DNA of 64,000 nt from Darksidea phi (taxonomy: Eukaryota > Ascomycota > Dothideomycetes > Pleosporales > Lentitheciaceae), in NCBI GenBank assembly GCA_030770425.1, contig JASJFT010000101.1, positions 99,800 to 163,799 of the forward strand, written 5' to 3'. The translations under genes were made by a program, and so were the position numbers. Below the pieces are notes generated by a model that did no database searches, had not been told where the DNA came from, and was given only the letters and a program-made list of their open reading frames with translations. Shown piece after piece: positions 6,435 to 29,623 of the stretch. Within the stretch, counting starts at the first letter, position 1; each line of letters opens with the position of its first letter.

Positions 6435-8085
6435 CTATACCCTCTTCCACAGCGCTACCTTGACCCCGTCCGCATGGCTGAGCGTCAACGCCAGACTCTC
6501 GCGGAACTCGCCCCCGCGGGCCTCGATGCGCGCAAAGTGCTGGACGAGCCGCACCACGACGTAGCCGGCCTCGACCAGGGCACTCTGCTGGCCCAGGCAC
6601 ACGCGCGGGCCCCCGTTGAACGGCAGGTACCCCCACCCCGGCCGCAGGGGCCGCGCCGTGTCGAGCCAGCGCGCGGGCCGGAACTCGTCGGCGTCGGCAC
6701 CGTAGATCTGGGGTAGCCGGTGCATCGCCCACACCGAGTAGTGCACCGCGGTGCCCTTGGCGACGAATACGGGCGCGCGGCCGTCGGCGCCACCTCCGCG
6801 CGGGATGGCCGTGTGGCGCGTGGCGAAGCGCATGTTGACGGGCACGGGCGGGTGGAGGCGCAGAGCTAAGGAGAGAAAAAACAACACATCAGAAAAAAAG
6901 AGGCCTTGGGGTGGTGTCTAAGGTGGTGCCTTACTCTCGTCCATAATGCTCCGCAGAACGTGCATGCTCTTCAGCGTGTTGTAGTCGGGCACACGCCCCT
7001 CCAGCCGGTCCACCTCGGCCGCCAGCGCGCCCCAGACGTCAGGGTGCCGGGCCAGGAAGTAGAAGATGCTGCTCAGTAGGCCGGCCGTGGTGTCGCGCGC
7101 GGCGAGGAGCACGTTCAGGAGCTCGTTGCGGATCTGGGTCGGGTCGCGGCAGACCGACGACAGCTCGGAGAGCAGGTTGTACCGGCGCGTCTTGACGCCG
7201 TCGGGTCTCTTCCTGTCCTGCAGCATGTCGGCGATGTAGTTGTCCACAAAGGCGTGCACCACGTCGCAGGCTTTCTCGAAGCCCGCGTCCTTCTTCAAGA
7301 CGTCGGCGAGCCCTACGAGCTTGCCGAGGCGCACGCGGTCGACCAGGCCCACTTCGGCGCGGTCCCAGGATTCTGAAAAATGCGACATGGCCGGGTTGGT
7401 CTGGCAGTTGATGGAGCGGCCTAGTAGGAACTCGGTGGAATTGTCAATGGTGAAGTTGAAGAACAAGCGCTGTAGGTCCACGGTCTCGCCATCCTCGGGC
7501 AACTTCTCGATGAGATTCTGCACGTGTGTCTCGACGCATTCCAAGTCGGCTACTTGGGCTCTGGTGAAGCTGGGCCGGATGAGTGCCTATTCCATCGTCA
7601 GCCGCCTTTCTCGGCCCATAGCCATGCTGAATGCCGCGCCGCGCGGCCCGAATACTTGCTCTAGAATGCTCCCAATGCGCGCCGTCGGTCGTAAAGATAC
7701 CACGGCCAAGGAGCCGACCCATGGCACGCATCCTCGTGCCGAGACTGAAGTCATTGAATTTCAATGCCAAAATGGCCTTGACATTCTCAGGCTCACAAGT
7801 CATGATCAGGGGCTGCGCCATGACGCGCAGCGTCTGGGTGTGCCGGTGCGTCGTCAGGTAGCGTTGGGTCAGGCTCTCGAGCGCCTTTCGATCAAGAGCC
7901 TTCTGCTTGAACGCCCGGAACTGGTCGAGCCCCAATATGGGGTCGAGTTGGCCCCATTGCGCAGCAGGCTTGCATCCCGTCTGGCGTTTGAAGGCCTGGA
8001 CTTGGATGAGAGAGACGACCCATAGTCCAAGCCCGCAAACGACGAAGAGCGTCAAAGCAATCAGTGCGACGTGATCCAGATGCAT
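6435..8085 (-). CDS. Cytochrome P450, CYP52-like (fatty-chain/alkane hydroxylase type)
   Basis: The model is complement(join(6435..6865, 6935..7586, 7660..8085)), 502 residues, the normal P450 length. It has an N-terminal membrane anchor (residues 5-25), the I-helix oxygen-binding motif AARDTT (304-309), the ExxR helix ETLR (359-362), rebuilt exactly by removing the 69-bp intron, the FRPARW motif, and the heme loop FNGGPRVCLG with Cys449 as thiolate ligand. The segments HSRALIRPSF and PVPVNMRFA and the overall pattern point to the CYP52 group, which hydroxylates alkanes and fatty acids at the chain end. The intron 7587-7659 fits only as a GC-AG intron (donor GCAAGT); the nearby GT would put the next exon out of frame. 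The ATG at 8085 starts the anchor; no ATG lies further upstream in frame. In this cluster it probably hydroxylates the polyketide chain end. Confidence 0.9.
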
Positions 8086-8740
8086 CTCGTTCGATATAGC
8101 AAAGTCGTTATCTAGCAAGAGAAGGGTTATGACGAGGCCAATTCAAAGGCTGCTACTGTGCATCTCGTCCGGCATGGCCCGCGTCGTGACGAGTAATTAC
8201 TTGACTGGCCGTGTGAGACTTTGCAGGCACCCGAAGCGCCCAAACAGCCCATAACAGCCCCATTGGGGGTTTCCGCTTCGGATCAGGCGCTGCTATGTCA
8301 AGTTCTTGGTCTTGTCCGACTGTCCATATTTGGTAATAGACCTATTTCTGGCAAACCCACTTCCATACCGCGCCTAGTAGGAGTTCTGACATCGTACTAT
8401 GATCGTTTTAATCTAGAAATGGTGTTAAAATGCTTATAACATACTGTAATACGATGTTGGAAAAGGGAGTCAGCGCGGTATGGTTTGGTCATGGTGCACG
8501 TCAGCATACAAAATGAGTCACCCCTTTCGGGACAGACAGGTCAGGCAATTGCGTATGTCAGCATACATGACGTGTTCCACCAAAAATTATCTTGTTACTG
8601 ATAGAGCTAAATGGCCGTTCAGAAACACAACGCAAGATCCTCGCATATCGGAAACCTCACGTACCTTTGCGACAATTTTCTGTCCATCCCCAAGAAGGTA
8701 AATCTTCAAGTTTCAAAGCCATGGCGTCTCCTGTACACAC

Positions 8741-8914
8741 ATACTTCTACTCTGTGCCATCGACCTCTTCATGATGAACTTTGGGGGTAAGAGACGTACT
8801 CAAGAACACTATGCCCAGCTTGCGTCGCGCGCGGGCTTCCGTATTTCTTCCGTCTCCAAAGATGAGTCGTCCAAATTTGCCGTCATCGAGATGGTGCCTT
8901 TGGACTCCAAGTAA
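8741..8914 (+). pseudogene. 3' relic of a SAM-dependent O-methyltransferase
   Basis: The frame reads ILLLCAIDLFMMNFGGK, then RRTQEHYAQLASRAGFRIS and VIEMVP before a TAA at 8912-8914. The D-L-x-M-x-x-x-G-G-K-x-R-T signature followed by LASRAGF and a C-terminal VIEM is the end of a fungal plant-type O-methyltransferase. Just upstream the frame closes (TAA at 8699) and no SAM-binding part is recognisable, so only about 55 C-terminal residues survive. It may be the remains of a tailoring gene of the cluster; it could also be the last exon of a gene whose other exons I fail to see. Confidence 0.65.
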
Positions 8915-27786: not shown

Positions 27787-28234
27787 CTTGTTGAACACTG
27801 GCTGCGGGGAAGTGATTTCGGTGGTAATAAGCAGACGTCGAAGGAAAATTAAGAATGCGAGGCCGAAGCTCGAGCGAAAGAGAAGACTGGTCCTAGCCTA
27901 CCAGATTACTCTTTCACGAGGATTTGGCTACCGCTGCGTTCGACTAATACTTTGATAACGTAGCTGAAAAAACAAGGGTTAGCTCAGTTGCCATATTGGG
28001 ACCGTCCAAGCCGAGACTGAGTCAGCGTCCTATTTTGTCCCCTTCCTACAATGGAAATAATCTAACATGCATATAGCCCCTTTAGGACGCCCCAAAGTGA
28101 ACACAAGCGACTAACCAAACTCAGACATCTTCTATAGCCAATCCGAACGGCTGTTGTGGCACACTATATCGCCACAACCGCCTCGCCCAGCTCTCGTCCT
28201 CGCATTACCCTTGGGACACGGTAGACCTGCCATC
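27787..28234. promoter_or_regulatory. Bidirectional promoter region of trans-ER and glycosyltransferase genes
   Basis: These 448 bp separate two divergently transcribed cluster genes, so control sites for both must lie here or within the genes. I could not find a convincing TATA box, a palindromic Zn2Cys6 site or an exact copy of the published TOXE tox-box by eye. Confidence 0.5.
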
Positions 28235-29623
28235 ATGTCGCCAACCACGATACTGTTTCTCACCAACTCGGAGCTTGGTCAAGCTTCTGTGATACTGGCA
28301 GTAGCGGCAGAAGTAGCCCGTACACCAGGCTCGCGCGTCCACCTGGGCTCATTCTCACCACTTGCCCAGACAGTCCCCGATGGCGTCAAATTTCACTGCC
28401 TGCCCGGCCCATCGATGAAGCAAGTGTTTGCCAGCAGCGGCGTAGAGTTTCTCCCTAGGCACCGCCCGGGACTGATGGGCACGCCGAGAGGTTTCGCCGA
28501 AGCCTACTCTCGTGTCCTCGCGCCCTGGGACGAATCCGACTACTTCTCTATCTTCGACGCCTGCCGCCAGCTGATTCAGGATCTTGACCCATCGCTCGTG
28601 GTCTTGGATCCCCTCCTTGGAGCCGCGTACGATGCATCCGTTTCTCTCAATCGCCGCTCAATGGTGCTGAGCCCCAACACGTTCAAGGACCATGCAACGG
28701 GCTCGCAGCCAGGGCTTGAGGGCTTGTACAAAGTTCCATGCCTTGGTTCCGGGTACAGTGCACCTTTGGGTCCTCTGACGGTCTTCTTCAACACCTACTT
28801 GTTGCTGGCCCTCCATATTTACGGACACTGGTCCGCGCCTGTCAAAAGGCTAGACGAGGCGCGCCATCAACGAGGCATTCCTGGCCGTCTTAGTACCATC
28901 TCCATGTTCGACGACATCCGTCCCGACCTCATCCTCCTAGTACAGTCGACCCCTGAGTCAGACTTCCCCATGCTGGTGCCGCCCAACCTCCTGGGCTGTG
29001 GGCCCATCCTACCCTCGTTCCCGCCGCTGGCCGAGACTCACGCCGAGCTGGCCGCATGGCTCAACGCGGGCCCGACGATTGTCATTAACATGGGCTCGCA
29101 CGTCACGCACGCTACCCGCCAGGCCGCCGAGATCATGAGCGCCGTCGTGGCGTGCATGCAGCAGCACGTGGACCTGCAGGTCCTGTGGAAGCTGCAGTCC
29201 GACGTTGTCCCCGCCATTCCCCCCGCTCTCCTGCCGCGCCTGCGCATCGTGTCCTGGCTGCCCAGCACCCCCGCTGCGATCCTGACGGCGTCTGCGTCCG
29301 TGTGCGCCTACGTCTACCATGGCGGCTCCAACTCGTTCCACGAAGCCGTCGCGGCCGGCGTGCCGCATGTCGTGTGTCCGGTGTGGCTTGACACGTACGA
29401 CTTTGCCACGCGGGTCGAGCACCTGGGCATCGGCCTCTGGGCCAACCGTGGGCATGCGCCGGACGTGGATGGCACCAGTCTCGGCCTGGCTTTGGAGGAG
29501 GTTATCGATGGGGTTGGGGCCGAGGAGAGGAGAAAGAAAGCCCGCAGGCTGGCCAAGATTGTCGGCGGAGTGGATGCGGGGAGGAAATTTGCTGCGAATA
29601 GAGTGTCAGATGCTGCAGCTTGA
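28235..29623 (+). CDS. Family-1 (UGT/MGT-type) glycosyltransferase
   Basis: This is a single-exon gene of 462 residues, start ATG at 28235 (MSPTTILFLTNSELG). The N-terminal acceptor domain opens with a beta strand and a helix typical of GT-B enzymes. The C-terminal donor domain has INMGSH (start of the nucleotide-sugar domain), SWLPSTPAAIL, and the donor-binding signature YHGGSNSFHEAVAAGVPHVV followed by CPVWLDTYDFATRVEHLGIG. The HGG-x-x-S core is intact. There is no signal peptide. It would transfer a sugar from a nucleotide donor to a small molecule; the donor cannot be read from sequence. Sitting head-to-head with the trans-ER and near a chain-hydroxylating P450, it probably glycosylates the hydroxylated polyketide-amino acid product. 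Confidence 0.88.
   Translation: MSPTTILFLTNSELGQASVILAVAAEVARTPGSRVHLGSFSPLAQTVPDGVKFHCLPGPSMKQVFASSGVEFLPRHRPGLMGTPRGFAEAYSRVLAPWDESDYFSIFDACRQLIQDLDPSLVVLDPLLGAAYDASVSLNRRSMVLSPNTFKDHATGSQPGLEGLYKVPCLGSGYSAPLGPLTVFFNTYLLLALHIYGHWSAPVKRLDEARHQRGIPGRLSTISMFDDIRPDLILLVQSTPESDFPMLVPPNLLGCGPILPSFPPLAETHAELAAWLNAGPTIVINMGSHVTHATRQAAEIMSAVVACMQQHVDLQVLWKLQSDVVPAIPPALLPRLRIVSWLPSTPAAILTASASVCAYVYHGGSNSFHEAVAAGVPHVVCPVWLDTYDFATRVEHLGIGLWANRGHAPDVDGTSLGLALEEVIDGVGAEERRKKARRLAKIVGGVDAGRKFAANRVSDAAA

What the first reader, a model, noticed from the sequence alone, without database searches (positions are those of the whole stretch)
6435..29623. Candidate pathway for a glycosylated, omega-hydroxylated acyl-tetramic acid (or related polyketide-amino acid)
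Seen: a PKS-NRPS with active KS, AT, DH, cMeT, KR, ACP, C, A, T and a terminal R domain but no ER; a LovC-like trans-ER; a family-1 glycosyltransferase head-to-head with the trans-ER; and a P450 of the CYP52 group. Known: CYP52 enzymes hydroxylate chain ends; epicoccamides and burnettramic acids are chain-end-mannosylated products of PKS-NRPS pathways. Inference: the chain is built and reduced, condensed with an amino acid, hydroxylated at its far end and glycosylated. The lipocalin-like and GMC proteins could add steps not in known pathways.
Basis: partly seen in the sequence, partly recalled or inferred. Interest (0 to 1): 0.85.

Follow-up and report, generated by a model that had tools for sequence, protein, structure and literature searches.

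The report
Sugar-tipped tetramate cluster with lipid-carrier protein
A fungal gene cluster most likely makes a long-chain, sugar-capped molecule of the epicoccamide type, and it carries a small protein folded like the fatty-acid carriers that have been described as animal proteins.

Summary
Spliced models give a PKS-NRPS (4004 aa; all domains, no ER), a LovC-like trans-ER, a family-1 glycosyltransferase head-to-head with it, and a P450. By sequence this is an epicoccamide/burnettramic-type cluster. The glycosyltransferase is 76% identical to one in Epicoccum nigrum. The PKS-NRPS falls, with support 1.0, in a clade with Aspergillus synthetases that I presume BuaA-like. Its adenylation code DLGIAAVVWK differs from theirs. 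No separate N-methyltransferase was seen (limited search). That part is a new member of a known kind.

The parts
6435..8085 (-). Cytochrome P450, 502 aa, 3 exons (8085-7660, 7586-6935, 6865-6435), hydrophobic N terminus, heme motif FNGGPRVCLG
   Evidence: Spliced model; PF00067 190.9 bits; heme and ExxR motifs; nearest solved chains CYP97-type and CYP102-type
10351..11379 (+). DUF7702 membrane protein, 276 aa, 4 exons (10351-10489, 10545-10689, 10742-10994, 11086-11379); membership of the cluster not shown
   Evidence: Model; PF24800 69.2 bits
12938..25247 (-). PKS-NRPS, 4004 aa, 5 exons, KS-AT-DH-MT-(no ER)-KR-ACP-C-A-T-R; A-domain code DLGIAAVVWK
   Evidence: homologs; tree
26671..27786 (-). 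LovC-like trans-acting enoyl reductase, 371 aa
28235..29623 (+). Family-1 (UDPGT) glycosyltransferase, 462 aa, head-to-head with the trans-ER
   Evidence: no close paralog found in the genome
29759..30370 (-). FABP/CRABP-fold protein, 183 aa; exon 1 30370-30317, in-frame 60-nt intron 30316-30257, exon 2 30256-29759
   Evidence: Splice; family; fold of homolog; profile, control 75
31221..33448 (-). GMC oxidoreductase, 627 aa, 6 exons, signal-peptide-like N terminus by eye; membership of the cluster not shown
   Evidence: Model; PF00732 and PF05199

Best explanation
A biosynthetic cluster of the epicoccamide/burnettramic type. The PKS module with its trans-ER builds a long, largely reduced chain; the NRPS module joins an amino acid that is probably not the proline of burnettramic acid (a small or aliphatic one such as alanine is my guess); the terminal R-type domain closes a tetramic acid ring. 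The P450 hydroxylates the chain, probably at or near its far end, and the glycosyltransferase puts a hexose on that hydroxyl. A dedicated FABP-fold protein binds the greasy acyl-tetramate in the cytosol and hands it between the soluble synthetase, the membrane P450 and the soluble glycosyltransferase. Shown by sequence or model: gene content, domains, homology, fold. Inferred: chemistry, order of steps, the carrier role.
For: GT 75.5% identical over 400 aa to the E. nigrum protein P0012; P0012 is 40.0% identical over 427 aa to the A. mulundensis GT P0028, close to the 40% reported for EpiB-BuaB. PKS-NRPS matches of 77% (C. glycines, full length) and 80% (Ophiobolus, 93% covered), 50.6% to A. 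alliaceus P0087 (the reported EpiA-BuaA value is 53%). Clade support 1.0. P450 in most and GT in seven BGCs of this clade by PMC7421883 (parts 1-3 of 6 read). No PF12697 hit on the contig, in line with tetramate clusters lacking the Knoevenagelase. FABP-fold gene next to the GT in C. glycines (locus tags 004895 PKS-NRPS, 004897 GT, 004898) and on a contig of the same length, 26031, as GT P0001.
Against: No product is known. No separate N-methyltransferase was seen, so the product is probably not epicoccamide itself (50 of 114 candidates scored). The FABP-fold protein was not among the 11 hits for Ophiobolus, Apiospora, Lasiosphaeris, Cercophora or Epicoccum, which all carry the GT (4 of these 5 also the PKS-NRPS in the listed hits); it may be dispensable, absent or merely unannotated there. 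P450 not compared with EpiE or BuaG. R-domain residues cannot tell Dieckmann from reductive release. The PF12697 search missed a lipase-like alpha/beta-hydrolase frame that I read by eye on the same contig about 25 kb left of the P450 (L009 3-1460), so its silence is weak evidence.
Confidence: 0.66

Rival explanations
1. Reductive release: the R domain makes an aldehyde and the product is a 3-pyrrolin-2-one or related core, glycosylated later.
For: R domain keeps the NADPH motif TGATGYLG and Ser, Tyr, Lys. A lipase-like hydrolase frame lies about 25 kb left of the P450 on the same contig, though I read it as a TGL1-type lipase.
Against: The same residues are present in the presumed BuaA-like Aspergillus enzymes; PMC7421883 reports that tetramate clades lack the Knoevenagelase, and no PF12697 match was listed on this contig; clade placement.
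Confidence: 0.12
2. The FABP-fold gene and GMC gene are unrelated neighbours; the pathway is simply an ordinary four-gene burnettramic-type pathway.
For: FABP-fold homologs missing from the hits for several cluster-bearing fungi; stand-alone paralog at C223 with no cluster seen in the 20 kb around it; GMC and DUF7702 linkage untested.
Against: FABP-fold gene is next to the GT in C. glycines and shares a contig length with a GT in one more assembly; the window copy is 67% and 59% identical to these two, while the C. glycines copy is 30-36% identical to the window genome's stand-alone paralogs.
Confidence: 0.3
3. The FABP-fold protein is an enzyme (a cyclase, isomerase or ring-closing catalyst) rather than a carrier.
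For: Barrel proteins in fungal clusters are often pericyclases (recalled); R150, H152, R154, Y178 invariant in the 12-row alignment.
Against: Divergent relatives, among them a stand-alone paralog, share these residues apart from one H to L; the expected product has no ring beyond the tetramate.
Confidence: 0.15
4. The P450 oxidises elsewhere and the sugar sits on the tetramate or mid-chain.
For: BuaG is described as making multiple hydroxylations (PMC9685919 part 3).
Against: A close GT relative is from the species of a producer of a chain-end mannoside.
Confidence: 0.2

Closest known systems
Epicoccamide cluster epi/epc (Epicoccum)
   Same: PKS-NRPS with the same domain order, GT, trans-ER, P450; GT 76% identical to an E. 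nigrum homolog; adenylation code begins D-L as reported for EpiA
   Different: No separate N-methyltransferase seen on the contig; FABP-fold gene present; whether EpiD, a 'hypothetical protein', is the same protein could not be tested
Burnettramic acid cluster bua (Aspergillus burnettii)
   Same: Same clade by presumed relatives; GT and P450 present
   Different: Adenylation code DLGIAAVVWK against DVQHASVV-K in presumed BuaA-like relatives; no counterparts of buaD or the proline hydroxylase buaE noticed in the frames I read
Animal intracellular lipid-binding proteins (FABP, CRBP, CRABP)
   Different: 183 aa against about 133; no Pfam match; the carboxylate pair R106/R126 of FABP3 (recalled numbering) appears replaced by F143 and M176; fungal
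FABP1-CYP4A11 substrate transfer (PMC11847541)
   Same: Lipid carrier plus omega-hydroxylating P450
   Different: Shown biochemically there; only gene neighbourhood here, and the omega position is not shown here

Membership tests
Burnettramic-type PKS-NRPS clusters (clade Ib-A of Minami 2020) | PKS-NRPS in the BuaA clade | tested here: inconclusive
   Support 1.0 for a clade with A. alliaceus, A. mulundensis and A. multicolor synthetases in a tree of 50 sequences: the window plus 49 of the 101 listed hits longer than 3800 aa. That these are BuaA-like is a presumption; BuaA itself was not at hand
Burnettramic-type PKS-NRPS clusters (clade Ib-A of Minami 2020) | trans-ER, P450 and, in some, a glycosyltransferase nearby | tested here: met
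Burnettramic-type PKS-NRPS clusters (clade Ib-A of Minami 2020) | No Knoevenagelase; release as a tetramate | tested here: inconclusive
   No PF12697 hit listed on contig C4 (65 of 67 candidates scored), but a lipase-like frame on C4 went unlisted, and I do not know that the Knoevenagelase matches this family; release chemistry not testable
Epicoccamide cluster proper | EpiF N-methyltransferase | tested here: inconclusive
   Only PF13649 match listed on C4 is the PKS methyltransferase domain (50 of 114 candidates scored); none noticed by eye in the frames of the window and the 20 kb to its left
Epicoccamide cluster proper | EpiB-like glycosyltransferase | tested here: met
   75.5% identity over 400 aa to E. 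nigrum P0012; that P0012 is EpcB/EpiB itself is inferred
Epicoccamide cluster proper | EpiE/BuaG-like P450 | not tested
Epicoccamide cluster proper | EpiD hypothetical protein | not testable with these tools
   Its sequence is not in the text read
CYP52 | 40% or more identity to named CYP52s | not tested
   No named CYP52 sequence was available; nearest solved chains are CYP97 and CYP102 types
Glycosyltransferase family 1 (UDPGT) | Match to PF00201 over its cut-off | tested here: met
   52.3 against 19.5 bits
Intracellular lipid-binding proteins (FABP/CRABP) | 10-strand barrel with two helices after strand 1 | tested here: met
Intracellular lipid-binding proteins (FABP/CRABP) | Sequence relationship | tested here: inconclusive
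   Profile hits 45 of 46 at E<=10, best 0.004, many of them variants of one protein, CRABP2, and over about 60 N-terminal residues; reversed control 0 of 5; hhalign to one recalled FABP3 weak, probability 3.2%
Intracellular lipid-binding proteins (FABP/CRABP) | Pfam recognition | tested here: not met
   No family at E<=1 for P0202, P0209, P0210, none for the window ORF or L012 at 0.01
Intracellular lipid-binding proteins (FABP/CRABP) | Arg-Arg-Tyr carboxylate site | tested here: inconclusive
   Hairpin register from a weak hhalign alignment to a recalled FABP3 and my reading by hand suggest F143, M176, Y178 in place of R106, R126, Y128
Intracellular lipid-binding proteins (FABP/CRABP) | Lipid binding | not testable with these tools
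   Needs a binding assay

The most novel reading that the evidence does not exclude
[quoted passage not shown] The conserved R150-x-H152-x-R154 on strand 9 would line the cavity and hold the acidic tetramate head.
Probability: 0.35. Interest if true: 0.82.

Novelty: new variant of a known kind. Interest (0 to 1): 0.6.

Why it matters
The pathway itself adds a member to a small group of sugar-tipped tetramates, with an amino-acid code unlike the presumed burnettramic enzymes and probably no N-methylation. [quoted passage not shown]). If it carries pathway intermediates, it would help explain how fungi keep such greasy intermediates soluble and hand them to membrane P450s, and it gives a simple handle (one small soluble protein) for raising yields in expression hosts.

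Tried and rejected
NCBIfam gave nothing more specific than Pfam. Single-sequence phmmer of the unspliced 203-aa reading against solved structures found nothing of weight (3 hits, best E 0.26); the profile was needed. The family search was also run with that unspliced reading. Residues of the R domain do not separate release modes, in line with PMC7421883. hhalign to a single recalled FABP3 was weak (probability 3.2%, E 0.014): this counts against the sequence link and is outweighed, in my view, by the fold and the profile. Lipocalin-like Diels-Alderase was considered for the barrel protein; no such structure is among the rows shown, which does not exclude it. Six searches for print on FABP-like or lipocalin proteins in fungi or fungal clusters listed no paper on such a protein that I could recognise from titles and abstracts (open-licence PMC only), so this is not proof of absence. 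A search with virgineone as a term listed 12 of 309 papers, none of them holding it. The C223 paralog lies among frames that I read as a peptidase, an F-box protein and others, with no cluster seen, so the family as a whole is not cluster-bound. Sister relation of the window and Ophiobolus synthetases is unresolved (support 0.008). The Ophiobolus gene model P0081 is scrambled in its R domain and was not used for it. The odds did not change.
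Full report
What is there. The window is the last 64 kb of contig C4 (163,799 bases) of an unnamed 51-Mb genome, fungal by its genes. I built splice models by hand from open frames, GT-AG or GC-AG borders and conserved motifs. All end at a single stop. From left to right: P450 (-), DUF7702 membrane protein (+), PKS-NRPS (-), trans-ER (-), glycosyltransferase (+), a small protein (-), GMC oxidoreductase (-). 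From about 36 kb on, the frames I scanned are housekeeping types: reductase, PRKCSH, kinase with FHA, deaminase, SDR, TPR (PEX5-like by my reading), HSCB, RNase T2. The 26 kb to the left of the P450, read mostly by eye as open frames, showed lipase-like, PEX6-like, ankyrin and HET-type frames and nothing that I took for a pathway gene. So the cluster is about 6.4-33.4 kb, with DUF7702 and GMC as uncertain members.

The synthetase. Active-site residues of every domain are present by recalled motifs. The trans-ER matches LovC best among solved structures. The search with the whole protein scored 2052 proteins, of which 120 are listed; the closest are C. glycines 77%, Ophiobolus 80% over 93%, Apiospora 74%, Lasiosphaeris 64%, Cercophora 65%, Pseudogymnoascus 60%, then a Pyrenula metagenome bin 51%, A. 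alliaceus 51% and A. mulundensis 50%. In a tree of 50 sequences (the window and 49 of the 101 listed hits longer than 3800 aa) the eight nodes above the window have support 0.008 for its pairing with Ophiobolus and 1.0 for the other seven. The A. alliaceus protein I treat as a BuaA relative from the species and the 51% identity; it bears no such name in the database. The adenylation code, read with PheA numbering that I recalled, is DLGIAAVVWK in the window and Ophiobolus, DLGIAVVVWK in C. glycines and Apiospora, and DVQHASVV-K in three Aspergillus relatives, where the ninth place falls in an alignment gap. The epicoccamide paper reports conserved D235, L236, K517 for the alanine-loading EpiA (PMC9685919, parts 1-4 of 6 read). 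That fits but does not prove alanine.

The glycosyltransferase. 79 hits were found among 7996 scored candidates; the closest named ones are in Ophiobolus 78%, Apiospora 77%, E. nigrum 76% over 87%, C. glycines 75%. Two matches were found in the own genome, the gene itself and a 37% stretch of 64 residues. PMC9685919 says that an epicoccamide cluster, epc, was characterised in E. nigrum and is syntenic with epi. The E. nigrum protein is 40.0% identical to the A. mulundensis one, the value given for EpiB against BuaB. The A. alliaceus hit P0040 is lower, 36% to both the window GT and P0012, and may be a different enzyme. Of the 12 closest PKS-NRPS hits, 8 share a contig length with a GT hit. Three of these 8 contigs are over 5 Mb and two more over 2 Mb, so they show the same chromosome only; for C. 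glycines and Pyrenula the locus tags are also near each other.

The P450. It carries the heme and ExxR motifs and a hydrophobic N terminus; nearest solved chains are CYP97 and CYP102 types. The genome has at least four relatives at 41-46% over long stretches. The CYP52 label rests on a recalled resemblance; I could not test it. EpiE and BuaG were not available.

What is missing. On contig C4 the only PF13649 match listed is the PKS methyltransferase domain (50 of 114 candidates scored), and no PF12697 match is listed (65 of 67 scored). The second search did not list a lipase-like frame that I read by eye at C4 79.8-81.3 kb (L009 3-1460), so it is not exhaustive, and I do not know that the Knoevenagelase falls in PF12697. 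The first 79.8 kb of the contig were not read. So the product probably lacks N-methylation and is probably a tetramate by the rule in PMC7421883, which itself is circumstantial.

How it may work. R150, H152 and R154 are invariant in 12 of 12 rows and alternate on strand 9; in the broader set H152 is L in 1 of 10. By the hairpin register of the weak alignment they fall at L113, L115, L117 of FABP3 (recalled numbering), positions that I recall as cavity-facing in part, while R106 and R126 become F143 and M176. This suggests a cavity with a relocated basic site. An acyl-tetramate is an acid with a long tail, so it is a plausible ligand. FABP1 hands fatty acids directly to the omega-hydroxylase CYP4A11 (PMC11847541, abstract and start of the introduction seen). 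The gene pair here is the same pairing of parts if the P450 acts at the chain end. All of this paragraph beyond the conservation counts is inference.

How far the small protein belongs to the pathway. Two of 11 family hits thus share a contig length with a GT hit; four others lie on contigs under 1.7 kb and say nothing. Against: no hit in five GT-bearing fungi. Two relatives exist elsewhere in the same genome; the C223 one showed no cluster in the 20 kb around it.

Known and new. The cluster is a new member of the epicoccamide/burnettramic kind, in a variant form. Three papers place the FABP family in animals, after the split from fungi, or say none was found in fungi (passages only). I recognised no paper in the open library on a fungal FABP in a cluster (listings).

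Noticed in passing
G000 C223:425385-425933 (L012) and C41:34627-34845 (L013): Two relatives (30-36% to the C. glycines copy) of the FABP-fold protein elsewhere in the same genome, so ascomycetes may have an unnamed general family of this fold.
   Followed up: partly
   Followed up: no
Database hits P0036 and P0056: In two Aspergillus species the GT is annotated as fused to a PF03446 dehydrogenase domain (782 and 790 aa).
   Followed up: no
window 7659-7587: P450 intron 1 has a GC-AG border (GCAAGT...AATAG).
   Followed up: yes
window 8100-12900: AT-richer gap (GC about 0.45-0.48) between P450 and PKS-NRPS that holds a DUF7702 membrane-protein gene on the opposite strand.
   Followed up: partly
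Pseudogymnoascus hits P0085 and P0203: Pseudogymnoascus has both a 60% PKS-NRPS and a 63% (75% covered) FABP-fold homolog, but none of the named hits among the 79 GT hits is from it; perhaps an unglycosylated version.
   Followed up: no
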